Origin: a virus
IMG/VR virus record: IMGVR_UViG_3300031576_000034
Span: 1 to 64,000 of that record
Strand: one strand, 5' to 3'
Length of the DNA: 64,000 nt
This document shows positions 1 to 39,467 of the stretch, one piece after another (the stretch's first letter is position 1; the number at the start of each line of letters is the position of its first letter). Both the position numbers and the translations under genes were made by a program. Under the pieces are notes generated by a model. The model did not search any database. It saw only the letters and a program-made list of their open reading frames with translations, and was not told the origin of the DNA.

Positions 1-41
1 GAGTCGATCTCCACGCCGCCTGCGAGAATGAGCTTCGCCAT
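1..41 (-). CDS. 5' end of a gene leaving the window (third virion gene?)
   Basis: Thirteen codons are visible, reading MAKLILAGGVEID, before the sequence runs out. The start codon follows the stop of the capsid-like gene at 57 by 15 bases, with a purine-rich GGACGGAGAGAA stretch between them as ribosome-binding site. It is therefore the next gene of the same minus-strand operon. Nothing can be said of its function. Confidence 0.6.
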   Translation of the reverse strand, partial: MAKLILAGGVEID

Positions 42-56
42 CGTTCTCTCCGTCCG

Positions 57-770
57 TCACGCCACCGGGCGCATGCGGTAGCCGTCCGCGTAGATGCGCG
101 CACGGTAGCGACCGTTGACCAAATCGTCGCCCATGCCATCCGCGAGGTTGACGACGGTCCCGAGCGGGAACGACAGAGCGATCGTGAACGCCTGACCGCC
201 CTTGACCTGGAAGGGCGTACCGATCTTGCGCTCGTTGCGCGCCGACGTGCCGCCGTTGAAGGCGATCGTCGCAGGCGTGTTGCTCTGGTTGTTGACGATC
301 GCGCCGGCCACACCGTGCACGCCCATCGAGCCGGGGAAGAAGCCGAGAGGGTGCTGGTACTTGTTCTTCTGCTCGGCGATGATGAGCTTGAGGATCACAT
401 CGCGCTGAAGCCGGAGCATCTGCCGGAGCGAGACCTGCGGCGGATTCGGGTTGCCGATCTCGTTGCCGCCGTTCCACGCGGCAACCGACGCGGGCGCAGC
501 GAAGATCTCGACGCGGATCGCGAAGAGGTTGAGTTCCTGGTTGTCGGGGAGCGTGCTGCCAGCCCCGTCGAAGTTCGTGTCGCGCAGGATCGCCTGCCGC
601 GGTCCAACCGAGCCGGGCACCGCGCCTGCGAGACCGTAGGAGAAGCCCTGAAGGTCCTGGAGGTTCGCGGCGCTCGAGATCTCGACCGTCGTGTAGAGCG
701 GCGTCGTGGTCCAGTCCTCGGGCCTCACCTTGCGGCCGTCAGGGAGGATGATTTCGGTGATCTGTGCCAT
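57..770 (-). CDS. candidate capsid protein, paralogue 1
   Basis: A 237-residue protein without membrane segment or low complexity. It shares an order of motifs with the next gene (786-1511): ITEIILPDG near the start, then DW..(T/R)PLY, FSY, QA(I/T)LRDTN and E(I/V)F in the first 90 residues, and a similar RPVA/RRPTA end. Two tandem paralogues of about 240 residues in a cluster of membrane-anchored virion-type proteins recall the paired single-jelly-roll capsid proteins of the SH1/P23-77 virus group. That match is by size and layout only; I recognise no capsid family signature. The predicted content is mainly beta strand with many Asn, Gly and Thr. It could also be another virion surface protein. 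Confidence 0.6.
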   Translation of the reverse strand: MAQITEIILPDGRKVRPEDWTTTPLYTTVEISSAANLQDLQGFSYGLAGAVPGSVGPRQAILRDTNFDGAGSTLPDNQELNLFAIRVEIFAAPASVAAWNGGNEIGNPNPPQVSLRQMLRLQRDVILKLIIAEQKNKYQHPLGFFPGSMGVHGVAGAIVNNQSNTPATIAFNGGTSARNERKIGTPFQVKGGQAFTIALSFPLGTVVNLADGMGDDLVNGRYRARIYADGYRMRPVA

Positions 771-785
771 CGGGCGGGCTCCTGA

Positions 786-1511
786 TCAGGCGGTCGGGCG
801 ACGGTGAAGGCCGACGAGGTACGCGCGGACCTGCATGAGGATCGTCGCGCTCGTCTGCCCGTTCTCGAGGACGAAGTTCACAGCCGCCGCGGTCGGGTTG
901 ATGAGGAGGAAGTTGTAGTCCTCCGTGCCGCCGATGTGGACCGGGATGGACTGCATGTACCGCGCCTCCGCGGTCTGATGCCCGTTGTTGCTGAACGTGC
1001 GCAGCGCGACGCCGGCTGCGGGCCCAGACGAACCCATCGTCGGACCGAAGCCAGTCACGAACCAGCCGAAGCCGGCCTGCGGAAACGGCTTCTCCGACAC
1101 GTCCAGCTCGCCGATGAGTCGGTTGTGCAGAACGGCCATGTTCGGCGCTGTCGCCATGTTGCCGCCGTCGGGGACCGTGAACACACCCGTCGAATCGGTG
1201 TACGTCCACTGGAACACCTCGAGCGCGACGGCGTACACGAGGTAGTTCTCCGTCGTGTCGAGTTCGCTCGGCGTCGAGATGTTCGTGTCGCGCAGCGTCG
1301 CCTGGCGCTCAATCCCGATGTTCGCCGAGTTGATGACGTTCTGCGAACGCGTGTACGAGAAGAGGCGGATCTCCTCATCGGTGAACCCCGAGAGGAGGTC
1401 GCACATGCTGTAGAGCGGTCGATCGCTCCAGTCCGTCAGCGCGACCTCTTCGACCCCGCCCTCCGCGGTGGAGCTGGGGAAGATGACCTTGGTGATCTGG
1501 TTGATTGCCAT
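786..1511 (-). CDS. candidate capsid protein, paralogue 2
   Basis: A 241-residue protein, paralogue of the gene at 57-770. Shared pieces in the same order are ITKVIFP, DWSDRPLY, FSY, ERQATLRDTN, LEVF and the Arg-rich end LHRRPTA. It has no membrane segment and looks beta-rich. It lies 15 bases upstream of its paralogue and 7 bases downstream of a membrane protein gene, so the three are probably co-transcribed and highly expressed. The role as one half of a two-protein capsid is inferred from duplication, length and context; no database comparison was possible. Confidence 0.6.
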   Translation of the reverse strand: MAINQITKVIFPSSTAEGGVEEVALTDWSDRPLYSMCDLLSGFTDEEIRLFSYTRSQNVINSANIGIERQATLRDTNISTPSELDTTENYLVYAVALEVFQWTYTDSTGVFTVPDGGNMATAPNMAVLHNRLIGELDVSEKPFPQAGFGWFVTGFGPTMGSSGPAAGVALRTFSNNGHQTAEARYMQSIPVHIGGTEDYNFLLINPTAAAVNFVLENGQTSATILMQVRAYLVGLHRRPTA

Positions 1512-1518
1512 GTCGTCC

Positions 1519-2028
1519 TCAGGCCGTGCGCCGACCGAACGCGTTCGTGTCGACGGTGCCGCGAAGCGAGACGGTCTCGCCCTGGCCCTGCTGGTTGCCG
1601 CGCAGTTCGCGCATCACGACGGTGCCGAGCCCGCGCGTGCCGAACTGCGGCACGACCGCGCCGGTTCCAGCGCCGCTCGGGATTGCGCCCGGCAGGATGC
1701 CGCCCGCGAGCTTGCGCGCGTTGAGCGCCTCGAGGCCCATGATGCCGAGGCCGGCCCCGACGCTCGTGAGCCCTGCGGTCGCTGACCCGCGCATCCCCGC
1801 GAGGAGGTGAAGCGCGATCGAACCGAGGACGCCGAGTGCCGTCCCGATGGCCGGAGCCCACCGGTAGACCTTCGCCGCCGTCACGGAAGTCGACGGGTTG
1901 ACGACCGCTCGGATGCCGGCGGTGCCGCCGACCGTGAGCACGAGGCCCGCGGCGACAGGTACGAGATAGCTCGCCATCCCGCCGTTCTTGAGAGCACGAA
2001 GCCCTCGGAATCCACGCTTGTGCGCCAT
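1519..2028 (-). CDS. membrane protein of the virion cluster
   Basis: A 169-residue protein. The first 16 residues are basic (MAHKRGFRGLRALK). Hydrophobic segments follow near residues 20-40 (YLVPVAAGLVLTVGG) and 60-105, with many Gly and Ala, and the last third is polar. It sits directly upstream of the two capsid-like genes. An internal-membrane or membrane-to-capsid linking protein would fit, but that is inferred from position and composition only. About 90 bases without a gene separate it from the next upstream gene. Confidence 0.65.
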   Translation of the reverse strand: MAHKRGFRGLRALKNGGMASYLVPVAAGLVLTVGGTAGIRAVVNPSTSVTAAKVYRWAPAIGTALGVLGSIALHLLAGMRGSATAGLTSVGAGLGIMGLEALNARKLAGGILPGAIPSGAGTGAVVPQFGTRGLGTVVMRELRGNQQGQGETVSLRGTVDTNAFGRRTA

Positions 2029-2118
2029 GTCTGCCTGACCTCTCGTGTGAGACTACCACCGACTTTGCCCTACATGCAAGTAGATGTGCGCACCAACCGC
2101 ACAGAGTACCTGCGGAAC

Positions 2119-2583
2119 CTACTTCTTGCGACGCTTCTTCTTGCGGCTGTACGCGACGATCAGCGCCGCTCCGCCCCCGAGAACGAGCACGGCCGCCCCG
2201 GTCCAGATCGCGAACTTGATGATGCGCGAACGAGATTCCTCGCCGGTTACAGCGCGGACCTCCGCGTGAAACGCGTCAACGCGAACAGCAAGCGCATCCG
2301 TCTCCGCGAGCCACGTGCGCAGCTCCGCCTCGTTCTGCGACGCAGAGATCGCGTCGAGCTTGCTCAGGTGCGTGTCGAGTTCAGCGGAGAGTGCGCGCCG
2401 TTCGCGATCGAGCCGCTGGTAGTCGGCGGTCGGAAGCGCTCGCGCTGCTCCGGCGCGCTGAAGGAGTCGATCGGCGTCAGAGAGTTGCTCGGCGAACGCC
2501 TGAAAACGCTCGCCGGAGCCGATCACGTCCTCGGTGGAGACGGCGCGGAGGCCGTCGAGGGCGTTGAGGAGCATGACCTTCAT
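2119..2583 (-). CDS. tail-anchored coiled-coil protein
   Basis: A 154-residue protein with a helical, heptad-like polar body rich in Arg, Glu, Leu and Ala (about residues 20-120). One membrane segment, IWTGAAVLVLGGGAALIVAY, is followed by the basic tip SRKKKRRKK. This is C-tail anchor topology, shared by many neighbours. The start ATG at 2583 overlaps the stop of the upstream gene by four bases, so translation is coupled. Function unknown; a virion membrane protein is likely from context. Confidence 0.7.
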   Translation of the reverse strand: MKVMLLNALDGLRAVSTEDVIGSGERFQAFAEQLSDADRLLQRAGAARALPTADYQRLDRERRALSAELDTHLSKLDAISASQNEAELRTWLAETDALAVRVDAFHAEVRAVTGEESRSRIIKFAIWTGAAVLVLGGGAALIVAYSRKKKRRKK

Positions 2584-2924
2584 CGGCGACGCTTCTTTCC
2601 GCCGCGCAACGCGCCTGCTGACGCACTCTTCGTGATCTCGTACTGACCTCGGCGTCGCACCACACCGCGCGCACTGCCCGCCGCATCCCGGTCGATGCCG
2701 AACCTTGTTCCCTGGCTGAGAAACACGTGATCACAAAGCTGGACCTCAGACCCAGGCCGCGGCATCCGACGACCGAACGCCGTCGTGAGGTACTTCGCCG
2801 TCGATTCGCTCACACGCGCAGCCGTACCGACATCCGTGTTTGCCATCAGATGCGAACGCAGCGTTCGCGGCGCACCGATCGTCGGCACGAGCAGACCGCA
2901 AATCGGAATGCGCTTGCGGCTCAC
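2580..2924 (-). CDS. small basic protein, virion cluster
   Basis: A 114-residue basic protein ending in GGKKRRR. No membrane segment is visible. The centre (NTDVGTAARVSESTAKYL, then RPGSEVQLCDHVFL) looks globular. It is coupled by four-base overlaps to both neighbours. A second in-frame ATG 26 codons downstream (MANTDVG) could be the real start. Function not recognised. Confidence 0.6.
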   Translation of the reverse strand: MSRKRIPICGLLVPTIGAPRTLRSHLMANTDVGTAARVSESTAKYLTTAFGRRMPRPGSEVQLCDHVFLSQGTRFGIDRDAAGSARGVVRRRGQYEITKSASAGALRGGKKRRR

Positions 2925-3613
2925 TTGCTACCAGCCTTCTTGCGCCGATACTTCGTCCACAACCCCCACCCGACGATCCCCGTCGCAGTCGCGAGACCAA
3001 TCCCGATCGCCCACCAACCCCACGTCGGCATGACGAAGCGCGAACGCGGCGTCGAGATGTCGAGCGCGTCGGTGATGTCCGTGCGCGGGCGCGTCGTGTC
3101 AGGAACGGATCCGCCAGGAACAATCTCGGGAGCCGATCCGGTGATCGCCGCGTTGGCCTGCGTGATGAGCGCGGAGTAGACCCCGCTCACCGGCAAGTCG
3201 CGCACGGCCGCATCGAAGCTTGCGCCGCCCATCGTCGCGGCGAGTGCGGTATTCGCACGGTAGAACGCGGCGGGATCACCCTCGAGAAGCGCGACAGCGG
3301 GCGCCGCATTGTAGTCCGCGGGTCCGCCGAAGTAGGCGTAGTGCGCGACGTAGATCGCGCCGGAAAGCGCGTTGCGCGTGTTGGGCCCGAGTCGACCGTC
3401 GATCGCGAGGAACGGGAGTGCGCGATCGGCCGCCGCAACGTCGCTGAAACCCGAGGTGACGTACTGGCGGTTCGCCGTGAAGAGCGTCTGGAACGCCTTG
3501 AGCGCCTCGGTTGACCGAAGCGCGTCGTTCCTCGCAACCGCAGCAAGGTACGCCCACCCCGTCGCGGCGAGCGCGATGCGGGTTCTCGCTTCGCGCGTGT
3601 CGGCGACGGTCAC
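2921..3613 (-). CDS. membrane-anchored protein with peptidoglycan-binding-like segment
   Basis: A 230-residue protein. Residues about 35-85 contain LPFLAIDGRLGPNTRNAL, which has the D-G-x-x-G-x-x-T core of PG_binding_1 domains. A Pro/Thr/Asp-rich linker follows, then one membrane segment (WWAIGIGLATATGIVGWGLW) and the basic end KYRRKKAGSK. I infer a virion protein that holds the cell wall during entry while anchored in a membrane. Only the core motif supports the binding domain, so a helical structural role remains possible. Confidence 0.65.
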   Translation of the reverse strand: MTVADTREARTRIALAATGWAYLAAVARNDALRSTEALKAFQTLFTANRQYVTSGFSDVAAADRALPFLAIDGRLGPNTRNALSGAIYVAHYAYFGGPADYNAAPAVALLEGDPAAFYRANTALAATMGGASFDAAVRDLPVSGVYSALITQANAAITGSAPEIVPGGSVPDTTRPRTDITDALDISTPRSRFVMPTWGWWAIGIGLATATGIVGWGLWTKYRRKKAGSK

Positions 3614-3626
3614 GAGCGCGCCTCAG

Positions 3627-3749
3627 CTACTTCTTCCGCTTGCTCTTCTTGCGAGCCTTGACCTTGCGACAGCCCACGTAGTGATCGCCGGACTTGCGGC
3701 ACCCGCGGTACCACACGCGCTTGCGACCCTTCTTCTTCTTGCCTGCCAT
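3627..3749 (-). CDS. tiny Lys/Arg-rich protein, family member 1
   Basis: A 40-residue protein starting MAGKKKKGRKRVWYRGC and ending KKSKRKK, with two Cys (both as GCRK) and a Tyr/Trp pair. It is one of four consecutive genes with a MA(K/G)KxK start, high positive charge and Cys. Such proteins could neutralise packaged DNA or sit at the inner capsid. GC-rich codon third positions and regular spacing support real coding despite the size. Confidence 0.65.
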   Translation of the reverse strand: MAGKKKKGRKRVWYRGCRKSGDHYVGCRKVKARKKSKRKK

Positions 3750-3783
3750 GAACGTCTCCTTGAGCCAGTTGAACACGGCCGGA

Positions 3784-3942
3784 CTACTTGCAGTCCTTGC
3801 CGACCTTCTTGACGGAGCCCTTGCGGCCCTTCACGCGACAACCGTTGCCTTTGGCCGTGACGCGCTTGCCGCGCCAACGCGACGGGCAGTGACAGCCGGG
3901 CGCCTTGCGACCGCGGGACGACTTGCGCTTCTTCTTCGCCAT
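3784..3942 (-). CDS. tiny Lys/Arg-rich Cys protein, family member 2
   Basis: A 52-residue protein starting MAKKKRKSSRGRK, with Cys in a CHC pair and two further Cys in the C-terminal half (GNGCRVKGRK and KDCK). About 40 % of residues are Lys or Arg. A good ribosome-binding site (AGGAGA) lies 6 bases before the ATG. Possible DNA-condensing virion core protein; the paired Cys could bind metal or form disulfides. Confidence 0.65.
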   Translation of the reverse strand: MAKKKRKSSRGRKAPGCHCPSRWRGKRVTAKGNGCRVKGRKGSVKKVGKDCK

Positions 3943-3951
3943 GATGTTCTC

Positions 3952-4110
3952 CTACTTCGGCTGCGCGGCGCAGACGAAGCCGCTCTTCTTCTTGAACTTG
4001 ATCTTGGTGACCTTGCGACCGTTCCACTCGAACGGGCACTTGCCGGACGCCAGCTTCTTCACGAAGCGCGGCGCGTTCTTCGGGAGCTTGCGCTTCTTCT
4101 TCTTGGCCAT
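3952..4110 (-). CDS. tiny Lys/Arg-rich Cys protein, family member 3
   Basis: A 52-residue protein starting MAKKKKRKLPKN, with the core CPFEWNGRKVTKIKFKKKSG and a second Cys near the end (FVCAAQPK). Its length equals that of the downstream member 2, and the pattern of Lys-rich head, aromatic-containing core and Cys is shared. It begins next to the stop of member 4, within the same operon. The family relationship is judged by eye. Confidence 0.65.
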   Translation of the reverse strand: MAKKKKRKLPKNAPRFVKKLASGKCPFEWNGRKVTKIKFKKKSGFVCAAQPK

Positions 4111-4111
4111 G

Positions 4112-4408
4112 TCAGGTGCACCCGCACGTGCCGCCCTTGAGGCCGCGCACCGAGATCGCGCGCTGCGGGATGATCGGCATGCGTCCCTGCGGGCCGAGTC
4201 CGCGCTTGGTGGGCTTCCTCTCGCGGATCGTCCTGGGGCGACGCGTGCGAAAGGAACCCGGCGCGGTCGCGACGCACGTGGGCGCTTTGAACTTCTTGCC
4301 GGTCTTTGGCGAGCGCGCCCCGAGCACGTAGCCCGAAGAGCAGACGAACTGGTCGCCCTTGCGACGCCGGCCCCACTTCTTGCCCTTCTTCTTGGTCTTC
4401 TTCGCCAC
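4112..4408 (-). CDS. Lys/Arg-rich Cys protein, family member 4
   Basis: A 98-residue protein starting MAKKTKKKGKKWGRRRKG. It has Cys in FVCSSGYVLG and PTCVATA and a final CGC, plus an Arg/Pro-rich second half (TRRPRTIRERKPTKRG). It is strongly basic throughout, the longest of the four-gene family and the first transcribed of them. DNA-binding virion core protein is the leading guess; ribosomal-protein-like charge alone does not prove it. Confidence 0.65.
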   Translation of the reverse strand: MAKKTKKKGKKWGRRRKGDQFVCSSGYVLGARSPKTGKKFKAPTCVATAPGSFRTRRPRTIRERKPTKRGLGPQGRMPIIPQRAISVRGLKGGTCGCT

Positions 4409-4420
4409 GGGCGACCTCGA

Positions 4421-4711
4421 CTACTTCTTCTTCTTGCGGAAGACGAAGAACGCGACGACGCCACCGACGACGAGCCCCGCGCCCGCCCACGGCAGCCACG
4501 TCGGCATCGTCATCGCGCCAAGGCCGCGACCTCCGAGCCCCACGATGCCGCGGCTGTTCGGGATCGAGTGCCAGCCCGTCGCCTCGGCTCGAGCCGCCGC
4601 GACTCGTTCCATCGCACCGGGCACGACCATCGTGCGAGAGATCGGCGAGACCCACCCGGGAGCGGTGTCGCCGAGCGTGGGGGACCTACGAATCGCGCGA
4701 ATGACCTGCAT
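4421..4711 (-). CDS. tail-anchored membrane protein
   Basis: A 96-residue protein. The N-terminal 65 residues are polar with Gly and Pro. A single membrane segment near residues 70-91 (WAGAGLVVGGVVAFFVF) ends in RKKKK. It is the first gene of the minus-strand block that runs from here to the window edge, and it faces a plus-strand gene across 84 bases. That gap probably holds the divergent promoters. It fits the set of single-pass virion-type membrane proteins. Confidence 0.7.
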   Translation of the reverse strand: MQVIRAIRRSPTLGDTAPGWVSPISRTMVVPGAMERVAAARAEATGWHSIPNSRGIVGLGGRGLGAMTMPTWLPWAGAGLVVGGVVAFFVFRKKKK

Positions 4712-4795
4712 GGAGTCTCACCTTTCCGTACATCGTACGCTAAAGACCTACACGTACGCAAGCAGAAGCGGCAGCGTCGTGGTAGAGGGCGAACG

Positions 4796-5047
4796 ATGGG
4801 CGACGTGATCGACCTCGCGGAGCGGCGCGCGAAGAACGAGCCACGGAAGTTCGCGACGATGAAGTTCCCGACGATCATCGCGGTCGGGATTGGCAGCGAT
4901 TCACGCGATCCCGACAGCGTCATCGTGTTCATCGAGATCGATGCCAAGCCAGCATTCGCGTGGACGCTCGAGGCCGAGACGGCGAAGGCGCTGCGAGACG
5001 CGCTCGACAGGACGCTCGCACAGCTCGAAGATCCGCGCGTGGGCTGA
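4796..5047 (+). CDS. small conserved phage-type protein
   Basis: An 83-residue protein starting MGDVIDLAERR. Similar openings recur in small phage proteins of unknown function. It is the only plus-strand gene between 1 and 8.6 kb and is divergent from 4711. AGAGGG lies before the ATG. Its stop is immediately followed by the stop of the minus-strand gene at 5048. The middle has alternating hydrophobic residues (VIVFIEIDAKPAFAW) and the end is helical. Function unknown. Confidence 0.6.
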   Translation: MGDVIDLAERRAKNEPRKFATMKFPTIIAVGIGSDSRDPDSVIVFIEIDAKPAFAWTLEAETAKALRDALDRTLAQLEDPRVG

Positions 5048-5514
<467 letters not shown>

Positions 5515-5515
<1 letters not shown>

Positions 5516-6822
5516 CAAGACACAACCTTTCCAACGATCGCGCCGACGATGAGTCCACCGACGGCCGCTGCCGCGGGGACAAGCCACGCGGGCGTTGACG
5601 GTTCCTCTTCGGGCGGAGCGTTCATCTCGTCGAGCCGACGCTGCGGATCGAAGCCCTGCGCGATGAGGCTCTCGTACATCCTGGGAACAGTGGAGATTGG
5701 CGTCGCACCTTCGCCCCACACGCCGCACTCGGGCAGGTCGATAACGCGCTCCTGAAACTGGTGGAACGAGAACATGCAACCCGCTGCGAGATATTCCGAC
5801 AGCGCGTAGATGAGGCCAGCAATCGCGGAGCAAACCCAACCGATCACCGGAATGAAAGCTCCAATCGTGGCGACCTTCCCCGCAATAAACTGTATGTCCG
5901 CCTTGTTCTTCACCTCGGCGAGCGTGCGCATCTGCGCGGGCGTGAAGCCGAGCGCGGCAGCGTTGAGATCGAGGTACTGGCTGTAGCCACCCCACGCGTA
6001 CGCAAGAAGATCGATGAGCGGGTACTTCGAGTAGACCTCGAGCTTCTTCTTCCACCACTCAACGCGAACTGCGCCGTTCGTGCGCAAGGTCTTGTGGTAC
6101 CGTTTGCCGCTAGGGTAGCCGGGGCACGGGCTTCCAAAGACTCCGCCGCAATCTCGGTAGAGGCCGGTCGTGTCGTAGTCGAGCCACTTGCTCCACTCGA
6201 AGTAGTCATCCGGCGCGGTCCACATGGCGCGGTCAGCCTCGCCACGTGTGGTGGCTTCCGGCCACGCGTAAATTACACGCGGACCCCAACCAAGAAGATC
6301 GATGTGGAACGCGCGCTCACCCTTGTGCCCCATGTCGCGTACCGCCGCCGCCTTCGCCGGATCGAACACTGACTGCGCAAACGCATCTGCGCTGGGCGTG
6401 TCAAAAACGCCGTCCTTGCCGCCCGCCACTGAGCGTGTTCCCACAGGTAGACCCGTACGCCAGCCCCAGGCCAAGTTGTCGGCCTTGCGCATCACCCACG
6501 CCCAACGCGCCGAAGCGCTGTACCACCGCTCCCGTTCGTCAGGCTTGGGCGTGATCGCGAGCGCGTTCTTGAGGTGCTGCCGAGCCGTCTCGTAGAGGTC
6601 TGGTTGGATCAAGACCTGCCGCATCCGCGCCGGATCACAGGGACCCGAGAACAGGAGCGGCTCCCCCCCGCAGTTGCCCTTGATGTGCCGGGTGTAGCCC
6701 GTCTTCTCAATGCCCACGATGCGCTGCTCAGCCGCGAGCAGACCTGTCTCGAGCGATGCGATGGCGTCGCCGGAGATGGCTGCGCGGACGACGCCAGGGC
6801 GAAGCTGCGGGATGAACGTCAT
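5515..6822 (-). CDS. large tail-anchored virion-cluster protein
   Basis: 435 residues, the largest protein of the left cluster. The N-terminal 290 residues look globular and aromatic-rich (many Trp and Tyr: WGWRTGLP, YFEWSKWLDYD, Cys at CPGYP). A hydrophobic stretch near 325-350 (IGAFIPVIGWVCSAIAGLIYAL) and a final anchor (WLVPAAAAVGGLIVGAIVG) are separated by an acidic Pro-rich linker. It could be a spike, vertex or entry protein, but no family is recognised. Downstream genes follow without gaps. Confidence 0.65.
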
Positions 6823-6825
6823 GGC

Positions 6826-7008
6826 TCAGTTCGTGATCGCCGGGTCCTGTGCAGTTCGATTGATCATGCCACCAGTGATCGGCTCGAACGGCTGGTTCTG
6901 CGACGGCATGAGCGGCACCGCCTTCGCGGCGAGGATCCGGTTGCGAACGTAGAGGACGCCGAGCGTACCTGCGACACCGACTCCGAGTCCGAGGAGGAAC
7001 TTGATCAT
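6826..7008 (-). CDS. 60-residue signal-anchor membrane protein
   Basis: The protein begins with MIKFLLGLGVGVAGTLGVLY, a Gly-rich membrane helix, followed by RNRILAAK and a polar tail. It is a clear short paralogue-like neighbour of the 72-residue gene upstream (MLKYGIGFGVGVAAVLGYL). The reversed topology, anchor first, contrasts with the tail-anchored proteins around it. Likely a minor virion membrane protein. Confidence 0.65.
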   Translation of the reverse strand: MIKFLLGLGVGVAGTLGVLYVRNRILAAKAVPLMPSQNQPFEPITGGMINRTAQDPAITN

Positions 7009-7011
7009 CGA

Positions 7012-7230
7012 CTACCTCCACCGAAGGCCGGCAACGGTGGACTGCCCACGGTACGCGTTCATCGGCGCGAGCCCGAACATCCGCGCCGGGAGCGTGTTGT
7101 TCGCGTTCTGCGGGTCCACGTCGGGGATCACGCCGCCGGGGAACGTGCCCCAGCGCGTATACTCGCGGATGGCGAGGTACCCGAGCACCGCTGCGACTCC
7201 GACGCCGAACCCGATTCCGTACTTGAGCAT
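7012..7230 (-). CDS. 72-residue signal-anchor membrane protein
   Basis: The N-terminal helix MLKYGIGFGVGVAAVLGYLA is followed by a polar Pro/Asn-rich tail. It shares the (G/L)GxGVGVAxxLG pattern with the gene just downstream, which suggests a duplication. Three bases separate the two genes, and a TAGCTGATGC-type junction with a nearby GGAGGT site is seen upstream. Likely virion membrane protein. Confidence 0.65.
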   Translation of the reverse strand: MLKYGIGFGVGVAAVLGYLAIREYTRWGTFPGGVIPDVDPQNANNTLPARMFGLAPMNAYRGQSTVAGLRWR

Positions 7231-7233
7231 CAG

Positions 7234-7563
7234 CTACCTCCGTCCGAAACGAGTGATGACCCAACCGAGGAGGCCGCCGACGAGGACGCCACCGGCGGCT
7301 GCGAGAGGACCGACGAACGAGAACGAGGCAGTTCCGCCGCCGGCCGCTGCGCGGGCCTTCTGCGAGCGCATGATCCACTTCGCCGCGCCGAACGACCACG
7401 ACGCTTCCCAGTTCTGCCCGTGTGCCGCCTCGTACCAGTCTGCTTCGAGCGAGTCGTACAGCTCGCGCAGTTCCGCCGGCATCGTCGTGCCGCCCCACGC
7501 GTTCGCCTCCGCAACCACACGATCGTGCAGCGTGCGCAATTCAGCCGATTCAGCCGGTGACAT
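7234..7563 (-). CDS. tail-anchored membrane protein
   Basis: 109 residues from the ATG at 7563; a GTG one codon earlier is an alternative. The polar helical body contains LRELYDSLEADWYEAAHG and is followed by an anchor near residues 83-104 (VGPLAAAGGVLVGGLLGWVI) and the tip TRFGRR. The start overlaps the stop of the preceding gene, so translation is coupled. Function unknown. Confidence 0.65.
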   Translation of the reverse strand: MSPAESAELRTLHDRVVAEANAWGGTTMPAELRELYDSLEADWYEAAHGQNWEASWSFGAAKWIMRSQKARAAAGGGTASFSFVGPLAAAGGVLVGGLLGWVITRFGRR

Positions 7564-7829
7564 CACTCGCCTCGCTTTCGCCCGAACACGAGGTACGAAA
7601 TCCCGCCGCCCACGAACGCCCCGACGATCAGCGCGAGGCCCTTCTGGACGAGGGGGTCGCGGAGGATGCCGCCGGGCGAACCTTCAGATCGCATGCTGCC
7701 GTCGCCCTCGACGTTGCTTCCCGTCTCCTCGATCTGCTGACGCTGTTGCTCCATCTCGACGTAGAGCTGCCGCTGCGCCGACTCGGTGAGGGGCGGGAGC
7801 GCGAAGTTGAACATGCTCGGAACGGCCAT
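7563..7829 (-). CDS. tail-anchored membrane protein
   Basis: 88 residues. An N-terminal polar helix (QRQLYVEMEQQRQQIEETG) precedes the membrane segment LALIVGAFVGGGISYLVFG and the basic end RKRGE. It lies 3 bases after the stop of the first gene of this sub-operon. It belongs by topology to the virion-type membrane protein set. Confidence 0.65.
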   Translation of the reverse strand: MAVPSMFNFALPPLTESAQRQLYVEMEQQRQQIEETGSNVEGDGSMRSEGSPGGILRDPLVQKGLALIVGAFVGGGISYLVFGRKRGE

Positions 7830-7832
7830 CAG

Positions 7833-8444
7833 CTACCTCGCAATCACGAAGCCGAGGCCCACGCCCGCAGCAAGCGCAGCGAGACCGATGAGGAGGTTCG
7901 TCTTGTCGAAGGCGGCGGTGGCCTCCCCTGCGGGCGGAGATCCGCCAGCGTCCTCCCGAGCCTGCGCGACGATGTCATCCGCGGAGGGACTGCGGCGACC
8001 ACCGCGATCGTCGACCGCGTCGGCCACGTCGCAGAGCGAGCCGCCGATGTCGATGCCGCGTTGCACATCGAGCGCGGTGCCGGACGTGCTTTTGTCACCG
8101 GAGGTCGTGAACATGCCCGCGATCGACGAGCCGATCTGCGAGAGGCTGCCGCACGTGTCCCAGATCCCGCGAAGACCGCGGAGCTGCGCACCGCCTGCGA
8201 TGCCAGCGTGCACAGCTCCGAGCCGGCTCACTTCCATGTTGTAGCCCTCGAGCCCGACGCCGAGCGGACGGTAGTTGCCCGAGAGGACGTAGGAGCCCTG
8301 GCCGAGACCGTTGCCGCAGCCGACGCAGCCCGGTCCGCAACCAGAGAGGCCGCACCGCTGCGAGGTCGGCTTGATGCGGACGCCCGAGGACGGGTCCGTC
8401 GCGACGGTCGTCGGGAAGCCGTAGCGGTCGTAGTTGTAGGACAT
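7833..8444 (-). CDS. Cys-rich tail-anchored protein, first gene of sub-operon
   Basis: A 203-residue protein. Residues 28-48 hold a Cys/Gly cluster (CGLSGCGPGCVGCGNG) that could bind metal or be disulfide-bonded. The middle is Gly/Ser-rich, and the last 22 residues form an anchor (LLIGLAALAAGVGLGFVIA) ending in R. It is divergent from the HTH gene at 8653. The 8445-8652 interval contains phased 10-bp repeats likely to control this operon. Confidence 0.65.
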   Translation of the reverse strand: MSYNYDRYGFPTTVATDPSSGVRIKPTSQRCGLSGCGPGCVGCGNGLGQGSYVLSGNYRPLGVGLEGYNMEVSRLGAVHAGIAGGAQLRGLRGIWDTCGSLSQIGSSIAGMFTTSGDKSTSGTALDVQRGIDIGGSLCDVADAVDDRGGRRSPSADDIVAQAREDAGGSPPAGEATAAFDKTNLLIGLAALAAGVGLGFVIAR

Positions 8445-8652: not shown

Positions 8653-8859
8653 ATGGAGCCCCTCGCAACACCGATCGAGATCGCCCGCGTCCTCCGCATC
8701 GAACCACGCGACGTGTACGAACTCGTCGCGCACCACGGCCTGCCTGTGATGCGCGTCGGTCGACGTTTGCGCTTCAAATGGGCGGAGATTGCGGAGTGGT
8801 TGCGCTCGCCACCTGCGATCGGAGCTTCTCAGCGATCCGCAGGTAGTTCCTGCCGTTGA
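8653..8859 (+). CDS. excisionase/MerR-like HTH DNA-binding protein
   Basis: A 68-residue protein with ATPIEIARVLRIEPRDVYEL followed by GLPVMRVGRRLRF and WAEIAEWL. This is the pattern of HTH_17 (excisionase family) helix-turn-helix proteins. The start at 8653 is preferred because GAGGGA lies 7 bases upstream; an in-frame ATG at 8602 would add 17 residues. Its position beside the phased repeats suggests a regulator of the divergent virion operon. Its 3' end overlaps the convergent gene at 8774 by 86 bases, which is unusual. Confidence 0.7.
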   Translation: MEPLATPIEIARVLRIEPRDVYELVAHHGLPVMRVGRRLRFKWAEIAEWLRSPPAIGASQRSAGSSCR

Positions 8860-9043
8860 ACCACACCGTCGCGACCCCGAACGCGGCGAGCGTTCCGCCT
8901 GCGACGATGCCAACCGGTCCCGACCGACGAGCCATGAAGATCCCACCGGCGACCATGAGCGGACCGATCACGAACACGTCGAGGACGCGGACCCACTGGG
9001 CCTTGATCTCGTCGCCGACGTGGACGGTGATCTCATCCGCCAC
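8774..9043 (-). CDS. two-helix membrane protein
   Basis: An 89-residue protein with two membrane segments (VFVIGPLMVAGGIFMA and GIVAGGTLAAFGVATVWF) joined by a short basic turn (RRSGP), and polar ends. The topology would suit a holin, but virion membrane proteins of this cluster are equally short. The C-terminus overlaps the convergent HTH gene. Confidence 0.6.
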   Translation of the reverse strand: MADEITVHVGDEIKAQWVRVLDVFVIGPLMVAGGIFMARRSGPVGIVAGGTLAAFGVATVWFNGRNYLRIAEKLRSQVASATTPQSPPI

Positions 9044-10373: not shown

Positions 10374-10410
10374 CCGCCTGCGAGCGCTACGTAAGCTCGT
10401 CGCCGACCGG

Positions 10411-10821: not shown

Positions 10822-10857
10822 CGCGACACGAACTAGATCGTGTAGACTCGACCTAGG

Positions 10858-11085: not shown

Positions 11086-11118
11086 CGTCCTTCGTGCCGC
11101 TCTGGTAAACGGACCAAG

Positions 11119-13488: not shown

Positions 13489-14739
13489 GTGACCGACGTA
13501 CGGGACTCACTCCCAAAGACCGGGCTGCTGCGAGCCTACGTGGACTGGGCGACGCGCGTCGTCCCTGTGCCGGGCTGGTACGTACTCTACACGATCCTGC
13601 CGTTCTTCGCGCACGAGCTGAGCCTGCGCGGGTACACGTGGCTCGATCAGCCGTTCCGGTTCTGGAGCGGCCTCGTAGGACCCACGGGGTCGGGCAAGAG
13701 CACCGCGGCGTTGCTTGCGCAGGACTTCGCGAAGGCGTGGTTCGAAGTGCGGGCGAGGGACATGGGGCCGTGCCCGGATCCGTTCATCTCGATCTCGAGC
13801 GCGTCGGTGGAGGCCACCGTTCACGCGATCGGCGAGAAGCATCAACAGCAAAACGATCTGTCGTGCGCGATCCTCGTCGCCGACGAGTTCACGAGCGTGA
13901 TCCAGCGCAAGGGTTTCTTGGAGTTCCTCAACACGATCTACGACTGCCGCAACTACAGCCTGAACTACATGAAGTACCGCAACACGGACGTGAAGACGCT
14001 GATCAAGAATCCGCGCGTATCGCTCTGTGTGCTCACGACGATCGACGCGCTCGGGATCAACGCCGAACGCGACTTTGGCGGGGGCGGAATGCTCAACCGG
14101 CTCAACTGGGTGCGCGAGAACGCGATGCCGTACGACGACGAGGAGCGCGTTCGGGAGTACGCGAGCATCGCGGGGATCTGGCAGGAGTGGGGAAGGCGGC
14201 TGCTCGTCAACGAATCGATGGGGTTCAAGCACGGTGGCGTGACGTACGCCTGGCCGAAAAACATCGAGTTCGATCTCGCCGCGAAACCGATCATCAAGGC
14301 GCTCGCGATGCGCAACGGCGAGCTGTCCATGACCGACAACCACGTCGGGACGCACTACCGCTCGGCGAACGTCGCGAAGATGATCGCGTGCATGCTCGCA
14401 CTTGCGGACGGAAGGGCGTGGGCGAACGTCGAGGACGTACGGCTCGCCTGCGCGCTCTGCACGCGAGCCGTCGGGGCGGCGATCAAGACCGAGCGTGAGA
14501 TCGACAAGCGCAACCCGGACTACACGATGCAGGAGAAGGTGAAGGAGGCGATCGTCGAGTCTGGCGAGAAAGGCATGACGATGCGCGATCTGTCGAGGGA
14601 GCTGCACCTGACGGCCGATCAGCTCCGCCGACACATCGACGGCCTACGGAGCATGGGAACGATCCAGGTCGAGATGGTTGGGCAGTCGCAGCTCATCCGG
14701 GACGTGAAGTACCCGATGGTCGCGATACGGTTGAACTGA
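13489..14739 (+). CDS. DUF3987-like AAA ATPase, probable replicative helicase
   Basis: 416 residues from a GTG. Walker A is GPTGSGKST near residue 64 and Walker B is CAILVADEF near 129. KNPRVSLCVLTTIDALG and GGGMLNRL follow, as in DUF3987/YfjI-type phage and plasmid proteins. The C-terminal third is helical and ends in a winged-helix-like domain (MRDLSRELHLTADQLRRHIDGL). I infer an ATP-driven helicase role at the nearby origin-like zone. A packaging ATPase is less likely because the C-terminal domains do not fit. A truncated paralogue lies at 10411-10821. Confidence 0.75.
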   Translation: MTDVRDSLPKTGLLRAYVDWATRVVPVPGWYVLYTILPFFAHELSLRGYTWLDQPFRFWSGLVGPTGSGKSTAALLAQDFAKAWFEVRARDMGPCPDPFISISSASVEATVHAIGEKHQQQNDLSCAILVADEFTSVIQRKGFLEFLNTIYDCRNYSLNYMKYRNTDVKTLIKNPRVSLCVLTTIDALGINAERDFGGGGMLNRLNWVRENAMPYDDEERVREYASIAGIWQEWGRRLLVNESMGFKHGGVTYAWPKNIEFDLAAKPIIKALAMRNGELSMTDNHVGTHYRSANVAKMIACMLALADGRAWANVEDVRLACALCTRAVGAAIKTEREIDKRNPDYTMQEKVKEAIVESGEKGMTMRDLSRELHLTADQLRRHIDGLRSMGTIQVEMVGQSQLIRDVKYPMVAIRLN

Positions 14740-19722: not shown

Positions 19723-21585
<1,863 letters not shown>

Positions 21586-21901: not shown

Positions 21902-23527
21902 ATGAGCTGGTCCCGGTACGAGATCCCGGACGATCCGGAGTGGCGTTCGCTCGCTCGCGAGGCGGCTGAGGTCCCCGGGATCCGTGCGGACTACGCTGCG
22001 AGCCCGCCGCGAATCGAGTTGCCGAGCAACGCGGCGACGTTCTGGCCGCCAGCGAAGAGCGCGCCGCGTTTCTCCGCGACGATGGATCCGCCGGCCACGT
22101 CGCTTCTTCGCGGGTACCAGAAGCGCGCCGTCGACTTCATCCTCAACGCGCAGCGCGTTGTGCTTGCGGACTCCCCCGGCGTTGGCAAGAGTAGGGTCGC
22201 TGCGTTGGCCGCTTTGAACTTCCACGCGAAGCTCGGTCGCGGACCGATCCTCATCATCGGCCCCCAGCACCTCCGTCGTTCCTGGTACGAGGAGTTACGG
22301 CGTGTCGGTCTTCTTTCAGAGGAGAACGATCCGAGGTGGTGTGTGCTTCGCACCGTCAACAAATCTTCCGCGCTCGCTGAGGATCTGTGGCGGCCGGACG
22401 CGCAGTTCTACTTCTGCCATTACGAGATCCTGCACGCGTGGTGGGACCGGCTCTACCCGCTGCGGTTCGCGGCATCGATTCTCGACGAAGCGCACCTCGT
22501 CAAGAACTGGCGAACGCGCCGTGCGCAGGCCGTCGCTCTCGCTTGCGGCGCAACGCCGATGCGGATCGTTCTGACTGGAACGCCACTCCTCAACCGGCCG
22601 TCGGAGCTGCATTCCCTCCTCTCGCTCGCGACGGGCAAGTTTACGTGGGGCACGCCGTCCGAGTTTCTCGTCCGCTACTGCGGCGGCAAGAAGAACAAGT
22701 ACAACGGGGTCGAGAACGCAGCGGGCCTCGATACGCACCCGGAGGAGTTGCGAGCGCGTCTCGACACGTGCTTCATCCGCCGGACGATCGAGGACGTAGG
22801 ACTGGATCTCCCTCCGCTCACGAGGGAATCGATCCTCGTCGAGCCGGAAGCGGAGGAGCTGAAGAAGTACGCGTCGCTCTTTGACGGCTACGATCCCAAG
22901 GCGATCCTCGACGCGCTCCTCGATCGGCGCGGCAGCACGCAGACGTTCGCGATGCTCGATCGCGCGCGCAAGCTCGCCTCCGGGATGAAGCTGCGGGCGA
23001 CGCTTCGGGAGTGTGAGTCCGCTCTCGCGGCCGGCGAGCAGGGCGTCGTCTTCACCTGGCTCAAGGTCGTCGCGAAGCACATCGGCGGCGTGTACGGGCA
23101 GTGCATCACGGGGGAGATGACGCAGGATCAGCGGGACGTGACGCTTACGGAGTTTCTCCGTCGCGCGGCGGACCGGGAGCCGGCCTTGCTGGCGGCGACG
23201 TACGGCTCGTTGTCCGTGGGCGTCAACCTCCAAGTTGCGCGCATCGTCATCCTGCACGACCTCGACTGGACCCCCGCGACGCTTCTCCAGGCCGAGGCAC
23301 GCGTCTACCGCTCCGGCCAAACGCGGCCGGTCCTCTCCAAGTGGATCCTCGCAAAAGGGACGCTCGACGAGTACCTCGCGCAGATCCTCCTTGCGAAAGC
23401 CGACGTGATCGCGAAGACGCTCGGTGACCGCGAACCGCAGAAGCTCTCGGAAGTTCTCGGATCCGTCCGTCCCGAAACTGCATTCGATCGATTCTTCGAT
23501 GAGTTGAAGCGATGGAGGCAGAACTAA
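21902..23527 (+). CDS. SNF2-family DEAH helicase
   Basis: 541 residues. Motif I is DSPGVGKSR near 98, motif II is ILDEAHLVKN, motif III is LTGTPLLNRPSEL, and the second RecA domain ends with LLQAEARVYRSGQTRPV (motifs V-VI: Q-x-x-AR-x-x-R-x-GQ). This is the phage SNF2/SWI2 type, thought to assist replication or recombination by translocating on duplex DNA. It opens the replication block; its stop shares a base with the next ATG (TAATG). Confidence 0.9.
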   Translation: MSWSRYEIPDDPEWRSLAREAAEVPGIRADYAASPPRIELPSNAATFWPPAKSAPRFSATMDPPATSLLRGYQKRAVDFILNAQRVVLADSPGVGKSRVAALAALNFHAKLGRGPILIIGPQHLRRSWYEELRRVGLLSEENDPRWCVLRTVNKSSALAEDLWRPDAQFYFCHYEILHAWWDRLYPLRFAASILDEAHLVKNWRTRRAQAVALACGATPMRIVLTGTPLLNRPSELHSLLSLATGKFTWGTPSEFLVRYCGGKKNKYNGVENAAGLDTHPEELRARLDTCFIRRTIEDVGLDLPPLTRESILVEPEAEELKKYASLFDGYDPKAILDALLDRRGSTQTFAMLDRARKLASGMKLRATLRECESALAAGEQGVVFTWLKVVAKHIGGVYGQCITGEMTQDQRDVTLTEFLRRAADREPALLAATYGSLSVGVNLQVARIVILHDLDWTPATLLQAEARVYRSGQTRPVLSKWILAKGTLDEYLAQILLAKADVIAKTLGDREPQKLSEVLGSVRPETAFDRFFDELKRWRQN

Positions 23528-26932: not shown

Positions 26933-27640
26933 ATGCGATTCGAGCATGCGACGGGTGTACCGTCTCGACTCCGCGTGTTTCTCTACGGACACACGCGCAG
27001 CGGCAAGACGCGCGTGGCCGCCACGTTCCCGAGGCCGCTCTTCGTGTTCCCGAGGAACGAGAACGGCGAGATCGCGCTCGCCGGGAGCGGCATCCCGTTC
27101 GTCAAGGTCGCCTCGCGCGACGAGATGAACGCCGTCCTCGACGAGTTGCTCGCCGCGAACAAGGCCGGGCGCCTGAACGAGTACGGCGACACGATCGTGG
27201 TCGAGAGCTTCACGCACGTCGCGCGCTTCGTCGAGATGGAGCTGACGAGGTCCGGTGCGCGGGAGATGAAGGGCCAGTGGGGCTACATGGACAGCTTCTT
27301 CAAGCACGTGCTCGACGTGCTGTGGCAGCTTGACGCCCATGTCGTCTGCACCTCCCTCGCCTCGATCAAGGCGAGCAAGGACGGCGTGATCCTCTCGGCA
27401 GGGCCCGACATGCCTGGCAAGAGCGCGGGGATCTTCGCCTCCTCGGCCGACATCCTCGGCTACTGCTCGCAGATGAGCACGGGGCAGGGCTCAATCTTCC
27501 AGACGGCGCTGATCAAGCAGGGCGAGTTCGACGCGGGCACGCGCATCCCGCTCATGCCGCAGGGCATCTACACCAACTTCAACTACCCGCGCGACATCGC
27601 GCCGTACGTTGGCGTGCCGGAGCAAATTGCGGCGCAGTAA
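26933..27640 (+). CDS. Sak4-like RecA-family ATPase (AAA_24)
   Basis: 235 residues. The P-loop GHTRSGKT is at residues 19-26 and a Walker B-like TIVVES near 83. AAA_24 phage nucleotide-binding proteins act as single-strand annealing recombinases (Sak4) with an SSB and a RecB-like nuclease; all three are encoded here within 4 kb. The ribosome-binding site is weak and the gene stands 18 bases after the exonuclease. Confidence 0.8.
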   Translation: MRFEHATGVPSRLRVFLYGHTRSGKTRVAATFPRPLFVFPRNENGEIALAGSGIPFVKVASRDEMNAVLDELLAANKAGRLNEYGDTIVVESFTHVARFVEMELTRSGAREMKGQWGYMDSFFKHVLDVLWQLDAHVVCTSLASIKASKDGVILSAGPDMPGKSAGIFASSADILGYCSQMSTGQGSIFQTALIKQGEFDAGTRIPLMPQGIYTNFNYPRDIAPYVGVPEQIAAQ

Positions 27641-29310: not shown

Positions 29311-32300
29311 GTGCGTGAGCTTCGTCTCGAGTACGTCTACGACCACCGCATCGCAAACTGCGATGCGTGCGGTCTGCGACCGTTCCGAGACGAGACCCTC
29401 TGCCTCTCCGAGCCGAATGCGATTTCCCACCCGTGCGGATCGGCCGTCGGGGAGGGGTCCAAGTCCGGCGAGAAGCCTTTCAACTGGAACGGCCTCCTCA
29501 TCCTCGGCGAAGGCCCCGGCAACACCGAGGCGCGCCTCAAGCGGCCGTTCATGGGCCCGTCCGGCGAGCTACTGACGAAGCTGCTCACGAAGGCCGGTCT
29601 GAAACGGGAGGAGTGCTACGTCGGAAATACCACGCTTTGTCGGCCGGATTACGCCGGGCTCGACACGAAGCGTAAGAGCCTCACCGACGCGTTCCCCACG
29701 GCCGTCCCGTCCTGCCGCCCGCGTCTGCTCGCCGAGATCGAGGCGCTTCAGCCCCGGGTGATCCTCGCGTTCGGGCAGGCCGCGCTTGCTGCGCTCACTG
29801 GAGTCGAAGAGACGGTCGCCAAGCGTGTCCCGTACACGTGCGGCACGTGCAAGGGAGAACTTCGTTGGCGCCGCTGGGGGTGCGCGAAGTGCAAGAAGAT
29901 CTATCCTGAGTTTCCCGTTGTCGATGAGAACCGACCATCGGACGTGACGACCTGTTGCTTTGCCAAGTGGCAGCCGCGCAACGAGGTTTGCGACGAGTGC
30001 AAGGGCCTGAAAACGTCCGTGCAGACAAGTCAGGAGTTCAAGACGCTGCACACCTTGGGGGAAGTCGCTGGCGGCGTCTTCCGCGCTCAGAATCTCCCAG
30101 CACTCGTCGGGATTCTCAAGGAGCCGGACAAGACGTTCGTGATCGCGACGTACCATCCGGCGCATCTGCTTCGGCCCGCGGAGACGAAGGGGGACAAGAA
30201 GATTGGGGGGCAGTTCCTCGCCTCCGCGGTGCTCATGCACTGCCGCAAGGCCGCGCGGCTTTTGCACGAAGACCCCGTGTGGTCGATGCGGCATCAGACG
30301 ATCACGACGGCGGAAGAGCTGAACGCGTACCTCGAACGCTGGGCTGGTGATGTCTTCACAGTGGACATCGAGACGGACAACGAAGAGCCGCTCAGCGTCA
30401 CGAAGATCACGTGTGTCGGGTTCAACGCGTTGAGCACGGACGAGGTGATCGTCTGCGACACAGACGGGCTCCCGCGCGAGCATCCGCTCGTTCAAGCCAT
30501 CTGTGATTTTTGGTCTGACGCGCGCTACCACAAGGTTGGGCATGGCGCGGTGTACCGCAAGGCTGGCCAGAACATCCTCTACGATTCGACGGTGATCCGG
30601 CACGTGTGGGGCGCGGAACTCGAAAACTTGCACTTCGACACGATGATCGCGCACATCGCGGTCGCGCCCGACGAGCCGCATCACCTTCAGCACATCGCCT
30701 CGAGCTTCACGGATGCCGAGCCGTGGAAGCCGCCGAAGAAGGCCAAGACGGGCGGGTTTCACTTCGACTCGAAGGAAGAGCTGCACCTCTACAACGCGCG
30801 CGACGTACGCAACACGAGCCTCGCAACCGGCCCCCTCTCCGCGCTCATGGTCGAGGAGAAGACACGCCAGGTTCACGACCTCGACATCCGCAAGGTCGAG
30901 ATCGCGCGGCACATGACGCTCGCCGGCATGCCGGTGGACCGCCGAGAGATGCTCCGCATCGGTGCAGACGCGCAGTACGAACGCGAGACCGAGCAACGCG
31001 AGATGCGCGCGATGTTCGGACGGCTGCCCGACTCAGTTCTGAGCAAGGCCGCCCAGGAGGACGTGCGGAAGGGTTCCCAGGACGCCTTCTACTTCAACCC
31101 GCACTCGACGCCGCAGCTCCAATGGGCTCTCTTCGACCCGCAAGGCCCGTTCAAGATGCCGCCGACAGGCTTCACGGACGGCGGGGGCGCGTCCACGGAC
31201 AAACCTGCGCTCATGGCCGTCCTCTCGGCGCCGCACGCCCCTCGTGAGGCCAAGGACTTCGTGCAGCGGCTCATGCGCTACCGCGATGCGAAGATGGTCA
31301 CGACGCTCTGCAACATCTCAGAGGGCGAGAAGGGGCTCCAGATCGGCGTGGACGGTCGTGTGCACCCGTCATGGTACCCGAATGGTGCACGGACGGGGCG
31401 TTGGACGAGCGAACCGAACTTTCAGAATTTCAAAAAGTGGCTGCGCGCGATGTTCCGCGTCGGCGAAGGCCGGCGGCTCGTTGGAGCCGACAAGGCCCAG
31501 TTGGAACTTCGGATCATGGCCGCCCGCGCTGGCGCGACCGACCTCATCCGCCGCTGCAAGACCGCTGTCGAGTCCCGCAAGCTCGAGCCCGAGTGCGACC
31601 CGCACAGCTTCATCGCGAGTAAGTTCTTCGGCGAGACGTTCACGCTGCTCTCGCTCGCCGATCCACTCCACGACAGGGCGAACAAGCGGTGCAAGTGCGA
31701 GACGTGCATCCGCAAACTCCTGCGCGAGGTGATCAAGCGCGGCATCTACGGCCTCGCCTACGGTGCGACCGAGTACACGGTCTACGAGGCCCTCATCGAC
31801 GGCGGCTACGACGGGCCGCCGATCTCGGTCGAGATGATCCGTGCCGCGATCGATCTCGTCTTCACGACGTGGCCGGAGTTGCGGACGTACTTCGACGGGC
31901 AGTACGCGCTGGCGCTCAAGACCGGGTACGTGTTCGACGGGCTGCTCGGGCGGATGCGGTGTTTTCCGCTTGGGGATGTGTCGCAGACGGAAGTATTCAA
32001 CTGGGGGGTCCAGTGCCTTCCGGGCAACGTGCGTGTGCTGACGGCTGGCGGCTACATTCCGATCGGGGAGATCGCGCGGCCAGTGTTCGCTTGGACTGGC
32101 AACCGCTGGTCGCCCGCTCGGAGGATCTCAAAGGGTGCAGAGCAGGTGTGGCGCGTGACAACGGACGCCGGGCATGCGCTGGAGGCAAACGCTGCGCACC
32201 GGTTGCTCGTAGCGGACGGCGCCGACTTCGTTTGGCGTGAAACGGCTGCCTTGAAACCTGGCGACACAATTGGATTGTCGTTGGCCACCCCGATGCGCTG

Positions 32301-39464: not shown

Positions 39465-39467
39465 TAG

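What the first reader, a model, noticed from the sequence alone, without database searches (positions are those of the whole stretch)
57..8444. Possible large tailless, membrane-containing phage: a cluster of about ten single-span membrane proteins next to a capsid-like pair
Seen: between 1.5 and 8.4 kb at least nine consecutive genes encode short proteins with one Gly/Ala-rich membrane helix, mostly at the C-terminus and ending in Lys/Arg. Two tandem paralogues of about 240 residues precede them, and no terminase, portal, tape measure or tail gene is visible in 64 kb. Known: internal-membrane phages (PRD1, PM2, SH1/P23-77 groups) carry clusters of small membrane proteins, and SH1/P23-77 have two related capsid proteins, but their genomes are around 35 kb or less. 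Inference: this could be a much larger member of that way of life, with its own PolA and glycan locus. The packaging ATPase would lie outside the window.
Basis: partly seen in the sequence, partly recalled or inferred. Interest (0 to 1): 0.8.

Follow-up and report, generated by a model that had tools for sequence, protein, structure and literature searches.

The report
Giant tailless membrane phage lineage (inferred)
The DNA appears to come from an uncultured phage that builds a tailless shell around a membrane; a related genome that closes into a circle is about 87,000 bases, twice the largest such bacterial phage known to us, and shows no DNA-packaging motor of the usual tailed or tailless kinds.

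Summary
The window is 64 kb of a 68.4-kb IMG/VR contig. The two 240-residue proteins at 57-1511 are true paralogues. The contig starts inside a probable third. Three relatives (30.7, 37.9 and 86.8 kb) share the same order: membrane-protein cluster with tiny Lys/Arg-rich proteins, a capsid-like triplet, two larger beta-rich proteins, and a transglutaminase-like protein beside a UDG-PolA replication module. The 86.8-kb relative has an exact 123-bp terminal repeat, and a gene reads across the junction, so it looks circular and complete (about 86.7 kb). It has no recognisable terminase, portal, HK97 capsid or tail gene, and no FtsK/HerA-type packaging ATPase. AlphaFold models of both paralogues are all-beta. 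Their best capsid matches are vertical single-jelly-roll proteins of internal-membrane viruses (SPV1, HHIV-2, SH1), with weak scores. Best reading: a new lineage of tailless, internal-membrane phages, twice the size of SSIP-1 (43.8 kb), with three capsid paralogues and perhaps DNA condensed by basic proteins. Particle, membrane and jelly-roll type are inferred, not shown. Corrections to the finding: the membrane genes are interrupted rather than nine consecutive, and the expected ATPase was not found.

The parts
1..41 (-). Probable start of a third capsid paralogue (MAKLILAGGVEID...), cut off by the contig end
   Evidence: Reverse complement of bases 1-41 read by hand; position and motif match clade c paralogues that follow clade b in G001, G002 and G004. 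Inference.
57..770 (-). Capsid-like paralogue, clade b (237 aa)
   Evidence: Paralogy; tree; AF2 model pLDDT 58, pTM 0.58; Foldseek hits SPV1, HHIV-2, SH1
786..1511 (-). Capsid-like paralogue, clade a (241 aa)
   Evidence: AF2 model pLDDT 69, pTM 0.67; Foldseek (SPV1 at rank 3)
1519..2028 (-). Membrane protein with two Gly/Ala-rich segments, directly upstream of the capsid genes in all four genomes
   Evidence: 43% identity to G004 6016-6522, 29% to G001; hydropathy
2119..2583 (-). Membrane protein, C-terminal helix, tail RKKKRRKK
   Evidence: weak match to G004 4647-5096
2921..3613 (-). Membrane protein, C-terminal helix (230 aa)
   Evidence: 27% to G004 3773-4486, E=8e-14; helix seen by eye, under the threshold
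3627..3776 (-). Tiny Lys/Arg-rich protein (43% K+R)
3784..3942 (-). Tiny Lys/Arg-rich protein (40% K+R)
3952..4110 (-). Tiny Lys/Arg-rich protein (37% K+R)
4112..4408 (-). Lys/Arg-rich protein (30% K+R)
   Evidence: comparable genes at the same place in G004 (2882-4629)
4421..4711 (-). Membrane protein, C-terminal helix, tail RKKKK
5048..5515 (-). Membrane protein, C-terminal helix
5515..6822 (-). Large membrane-anchored protein (435 aa), C-terminal helix; positional counterpart of 515-587-aa genes in the relatives
   Evidence: counterpart by gene order only
6826..7008 (-). Membrane protein, N-terminal helix
7012..7230 (-). Membrane protein, N-terminal Gly-rich helix
   Evidence: by eye (under the threshold)
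7234..7563 (-). Membrane protein, C-terminal helix
7563..7829 (-). Membrane protein, C-terminal helix
7833..8444 (-). Membrane protein, C-terminal helix; positional counterpart of the G004 gene that crosses the circle junction
8774..9043 (-). Protein with two membrane helices
9759..10349 (-). Transglutaminase-like protein, last gene of the structural module
   Evidence: Pfam Transglut_core E=1.9e-11; 41-48% to relatives; related to SSIP-1 structural protein gp34, E=3e-10
13540..14739 (+). DUF3987-type P-loop ATPase, probable replicative helicase, first gene of the replication module
21902..23527 (+). SNF2-type helicase
   Evidence: PHROG 62 E=9e-76
26933..27640 (+). Sak4-like RecA-type ATPase
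   Evidence: PHROG 124 E=7e-22
29311..33504 (+). UDG-PolA fusion; intein-like insert about 32014-33234
   Evidence: insert absent from G001
37711..38046 (+). Membrane protein shared with the structural module of G001 (50% over 52 aa)
39468..40355 (+). Endolysin (amidase plus peptidoglycan-binding)
   Evidence: PHROG 1493 E=1.1e-24

Best explanation
The window belongs to a new lineage of large (about 87 kb, circular or circularly permuted) tailless phages. I infer a shell built from three paralogous vertical single-jelly-roll proteins laid over an internal membrane that is populated by about a dozen small, mostly single-span proteins. Larger beta-rich proteins downstream would be minor capsid or vertex parts, and a beta-helix-like protein a spike candidate. 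Lys/Arg-rich mini-proteins would condense the DNA, and lysis would use the amidase and M23 peptidase. Replication would rely on a UDG-PolA fusion, a DUF3987 helicase, SNF2 and Sak4-like proteins. Shown by computation: paralogy, three capsid clades, membrane-gene enrichment, synteny in four genomes, absence of recognisable tailed-phage packaging and tail genes and of FtsK-type ATPases. Inferred: capsid role, jelly-roll type, internal membrane, DNA condensation.
For: Paralogues; three fully supported capsid clades in four genomes. Same gene order in G001, G002 and G004. G004 has a 123-bp exact terminal repeat, and the gene at its ends reads across it. No terminase, portal or HK97 capsid in any of the four, with positive controls; Pfam and PHROG scans of most G004 proteins show none. 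AF2 models all-beta, pTM 0.58 and 0.67. Foldseek against 350,542 PDB chains puts SPV1 first and HHIV-2 and SH1 among the top hits for one paralogue, and SPV1 third for the other. In BFVD the second hit (I1ZBH9, 211 aa, prob 1.00) has the length of SSIP-1 gp46. SSIP-1 has a tandem pair of structural paralogues (26%, E=1e-12) and a structural transglutaminase-like protein related to the window's.
Against: Fold matches are weak (best PDB E=0.009-0.02, TM below 0.5), and for 786-1511 non-capsid jelly rolls and pgp3 rank alongside SPV1. Nothing links the capsid proteins by sequence to any known family. No FtsK/HerA packaging ATPase, which most viruses of this kind have. Membrane helices alone do not prove a virion membrane. 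Only four genomes plus one fragment are known. ParB and an integrase-like gene in G004 would also suit a plasmid or phage-plasmid.
Confidence: 0.74

Rival explanations
1. A tailed phage whose terminase, portal and capsid are too diverged for profile searches; the beta-rich paralogues are decoration or fibre proteins.
For: Most 70-90 kb phages are tailed; many proteins here have no match; beta-rich decoration proteins are common in tailed phages; some BFVD hits are proteins of uncultured Caudovirales.
Against: The apparently complete 86.7-kb G004 has no P-loop protein that could be a terminase beyond DUF3987, Sak4-like and SNF2, no portal or HK97 capsid and no tape-measure-sized gene in the structural module. 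Clusters of single-span proteins with basic tails do not fit a tail module.
Confidence: 0.1
2. Still a tailless virus, but the main shell is built by the larger beta-rich proteins (310-412 aa, perhaps double jelly rolls), and the 240-residue triplet forms pentons, spikes or minor parts.
For: Two larger related beta-rich proteins follow the triplet in all three relatives that reach that far; their fold was not predicted here.
Against: The triplet's best capsid matches are main-shell proteins of SPV1, HHIV-2 and SH1, and a tandem pair of small structural paralogues is what SSIP-1 has.
Confidence: 0.1
3. A large plasmid or other mobile element, not a virus, with a cell-surface membrane-protein locus.
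For: G004 has ParB and a tyrosine-recombinase-like gene; no hallmark capsid gene is found by sequence.
Against: Endolysins, DNA methylases, MazG, UDG-PolA and Sak4-like genes are typical phage genes; no conjugation or plasmid replication gene was seen; IMG/VR lists all four as viral; the structural module parallels SSIP-1.
Confidence: 0.06

Closest known systems
[quoted passage not shown]
   Same: Circular dsDNA; tailless, internal membrane (literature, PMC6356626); a tandem pair of about 210-aa structural paralogues; a structural transglutaminase-like protein, related by sequence to 9759-10349 (E=3e-10); no FtsK/HerA ATPase obvious in its annotation (its structural 'ATPase' gp40 looks RecA-like by eye).
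   Different: Half the size; two capsid types instead of three; no detectable sequence link between capsid proteins; no UDG-PolA module. That BFVD hit I1ZBH9 is gp46 rests on length only.
Sphaerolipoviridae/Simuloviridae and P23-77 group (Helvetiavirae, realm Singelaviria)
   Same: Two related small capsid proteins, clusters of small membrane proteins; weak fold similarity to HHIV-2 and SH1 capsid proteins.
   Different: Genomes 16-19 kb (Simuloviridae, PMC12642351) and about 30 kb (Sphaerolipoviridae, PMC12643093); they encode an FtsK-HerA packaging ATPase (PMC8812541), not found here.
Portogloboviridae (SPV1)
   Same: Best capsid fold match; circular dsDNA; no packaging ATPase (PMC8812541); internal membrane, nucleoprotein core and several DNA-binding proteins (PMC8459092).
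   Different: 20-kb archaeal virus; one main-shell jelly-roll protein plus a penton protein; no recognised replication genes.
Huracanviridae (candidate, ANME-1 viruses)
   Same: Metagenomic tailless viruses with single-jelly-roll capsid proteins (PMC9894754).
   Different: Archaeal hosts; not compared here by sequence.

Membership tests
Singelaviria / Helvetiavirae (vertical single-jelly-roll capsid viruses) | Two paralogous vertical single-jelly-roll major capsid proteins | tested here: inconclusive
   Paralogy met; all-beta models with SPV1, HHIV-2 and SH1 among top fold hits but E=0.01-0.15, TM below 0.5
Singelaviria / Helvetiavirae (vertical single-jelly-roll capsid viruses) | FtsK-HerA packaging ATPase | tested here: not met
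   PF01580: no match over cut-off in any of four genomes, positive in all 14 controls; P-loop survey. SPV1 and FLiP also lack it (PMC8812541)
Singelaviria / Helvetiavirae (vertical single-jelly-roll capsid viruses) | Tailless icosahedral virion with internal membrane | not testable with these tools
   Needs microscopy; gene content agrees
SSIP-1-like phages | Sequence-related capsid proteins | tested here: not met
   hhalign probability below 2%
SSIP-1-like phages | Shared structural transglutaminase-like protein | tested here: met
   E=3e-10 pairwise, hhalign 98%; the domain is widespread, so weak on its own
Caudoviricetes (tailed phages) | Large terminase | tested here: not met
   apparent PHROG hits are an intein
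Caudoviricetes (tailed phages) | HK97-fold capsid and portal | tested here: not met
   (one Pfam family each); PHROG and Pfam scans
[quoted passage not shown]
   No match by sequence; the 310-412-aa proteins downstream were not folded

The most novel reading that the evidence does not exclude
The largest tailless bacterial viruses known: about 87-kb genomes inside a shell of three single-jelly-roll paralogues, filled without any packaging ATPase by assembling shell and membrane around DNA condensed by histone-like Lys/Arg-rich mini-proteins. This would be a separate high-rank lineage near SSIP-1 and SPV1.
Probability: 0.35. Interest if true: 0.87.

Novelty: new variant of a known kind. Interest (0 to 1): 0.72.

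Why it matters
Tailless membrane phages are known with small genomes; the largest I found in the literature searched is SSIP-1 at 43.8 kb. A lineage at about 87 kb with its own polymerase, glycan genes and three capsid paralogues would double that size. It would test whether a packaging motor is needed to fill a large internal-membrane capsid, and would show a route to complexity outside tailed phages. It also shows how such viruses stay hidden: their capsid proteins match no profile library used here.

Tried and rejected
Single-protein scans of IMG/VR with 786-1511, 5515-6822 and 19723-21582 found nothing; pair alignments were needed. A five-row alignment was too diverse to scan with. No phage isolate is related; the PolA finds only distant DNA polymerases. 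'Terminase large subunit' PHROG hits in G004 (E to 5e-24) cover only residues 99-468 of a 900-aa SNF2 protein, an intein with LAGLIDADG/Hint signatures; the intein-free orthologue in the window has none, so rejected. A sequence link between these capsid proteins and SSIP-1 gp45/gp46: top-ranked among SSIP-1 proteins in one comparison but not significant. The FtsK match at 44907-45038 (E=0.004, under cut-off, 44 residues, no P-loop) is noise. Host from L012, a Chitinophagia MAG contig: it ends in a truncated piece of this phage, probably a chimeric assembly, so not used. The metagenomes' names could not be found.
Full report
Setting. The window is bases 1-64000 of a 68,366-bp IMG/VR record without end repeats. 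I called 124 genes with a codon-usage script of my own, so exact starts are approximate.

Observation. The two 240-residue proteins are true paralogues, 26% identical end to end, E=7e-14. Between 1519 and 9043, 10 of 16 genes have a membrane helix by hydropathy against 19 of 106 elsewhere (Fisher p=0.0004); two more were seen by eye. The 16 leave out a doubtful ORF and a plus-strand gene, a choice made before counting but by hand. The run is interrupted by four tiny Lys/Arg-rich proteins and those two genes, so 'nine consecutive' is too strong; the longest unbroken run is seven.

Relatives. Single-protein scans found none. Alignments of two or three sequences found three virus contigs: G001 (30,687 bp), G002 (37,943 bp), G004 (86,806 bp), and a fragment at the end of a Chitinophagia MAG contig. 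All three contigs hold three tandem paralogues, and the tree gives three fully supported clades with the window's two in clades a and b. The window contig begins 41 bases into a reading frame, MAKLILAGGVEID, at the place where clade c stands in the relatives, so the pair is probably a cut triplet.

Shared plan. In the relatives the triplet is preceded by a two-segment membrane protein and a cluster of membrane and Lys/Arg-rich proteins, and followed by two larger related beta-rich proteins (310-412 aa), small membrane proteins and, in G002 and G004, a long protein that looks like a beta-helix by eye. The transglutaminase-like gene and the DUF3987 ATPase mark the border to a replication module with SNF2, PD-(D/E)XK-like, Sak4-like and UDG-PolA genes. 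About thirty window genes have a match in G004.

A complete relative. G004 carries an exact 123-bp direct terminal repeat, and a gene reads through the junction in frame; its place in the gene order matches the other genomes. I take it as a circular or circularly permuted genome of about 86.7 kb. The tool's record header did not state this class, so it rests on my reading.

Packaging and tail genes. Pfam found no terminase, portal, capsid or tail family in G004; targeted searches for Terminase_6N, Phage_portal, Phage_capsid and FtsK in all four genomes found nothing over cut-off, with positive controls. Four G004 proteins that straddle my 20-kb pieces (847, 127, 949 and 741 aa), a few others and those under 80 aa were not scanned by profile. 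PHROG 'terminase' hits trace to an intein in SNF2. In G004 the only clear P-loops are Sak4-like and DUF3987, plus SNF2; the window adds a ComM-like Mg-chelatase. PHROG lists showed only the top 25 of 28, 54 and 40 families.

Fold. AlphaFold models of 57-770 (8 sequences, pLDDT 58, pTM 0.58) and 786-1511 (12 sequences, pLDDT 69, pTM 0.67) are all-beta apart from short helices. For the first, the top PDB hit is SPV1, with HHIV-2 and SH1 in the first 40; for the second, SPV1 is third among mixed jelly rolls. Scores are weak. In BFVD the second hit, I1ZBH9 (prob 1.00), has the 211 residues of SSIP-1 gp46; I could not confirm its identity.

SSIP-1. This tailless membrane phage (43,788 bp) has adjacent structural proteins gp45 and gp46 that are paralogues, which I take to be its two major capsid proteins (that it has two types is stated in PMC6356626; the mapping is mine). 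Its structural protein gp34 shares a transglutaminase-like domain with 9759-10349. The capsid proteins themselves show no significant sequence link.

Mechanism. I infer a single-jelly-roll shell over an internal membrane. With no FtsK/HerA ATPase, filling may follow SPV1 and FLiP, which lack one (PMC8812541); SPV1 holds a nucleoprotein core (PMC8459092), and the Lys/Arg-rich proteins could play that part. A divergent motor, or use of the DUF3987 or Sak4-like ATPase, is not excluded.

Verdict. A new lineage with the general plan of SSIP-1-like viruses but twice the size. I do not file it in Singelaviria, because one defining feature was not met and the fold is not firm.

Noticed in passing
window 32014-33234 (inside 29311-33504): Intein-like insert (HINT-type ends) in the PolA part; absent from G001, and the G004 polymerase aligns through the same region, so it probably carries it too.
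   Followed up: partly
G004 73684-76386 (L031 13687-16386): Intein interrupts the Walker A motif of the SNF2 helicase; PHROG 'terminase large subunit' families 19299, 36964 and 15 match inteins, a trap for automatic annotation.
   Followed up: yes
window 36065-49305: Glycan and nucleotide-sugar locus: dTDP-sugar-like epimerases, glycosyltransferase-like genes, an aminotransferase and an acetyltransferase (by eye); G004 has a different one (UDP-GlcNAc 2-epimerase, UDP-glucose dehydrogenase, methyltransferases).
   Followed up: partly
G004 39733-40116 and 77182-77442: Lipoproteins rich in Asp-Ala-Gly resemble those of Myxococcota, a possible host hint; from memory, not tested.
   Followed up: no
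L021 12657-13610: Chitinophagia MAG contig ends in a truncated piece of this phage lineage very similar to G001; probably a chimeric assembly.
   Followed up: partly
window 10355-11176: Looks like a partial second copy of the DUF3987 helicase C-terminal part, outside the main replication module.
   Followed up: no
window 64070-65266 and 66203-66667 (record coordinates; beyond 64000 in L001): ComM/YifB-like Mg-chelatase and RadC-like genes near the right end of the contig, unusual in phages.
   Followed up: no
G004 50732-52216 and 65839-66144: Cytochrome c peroxidase-like (MauG) gene and a GroES-like gene in a phage genome.
   Followed up: no
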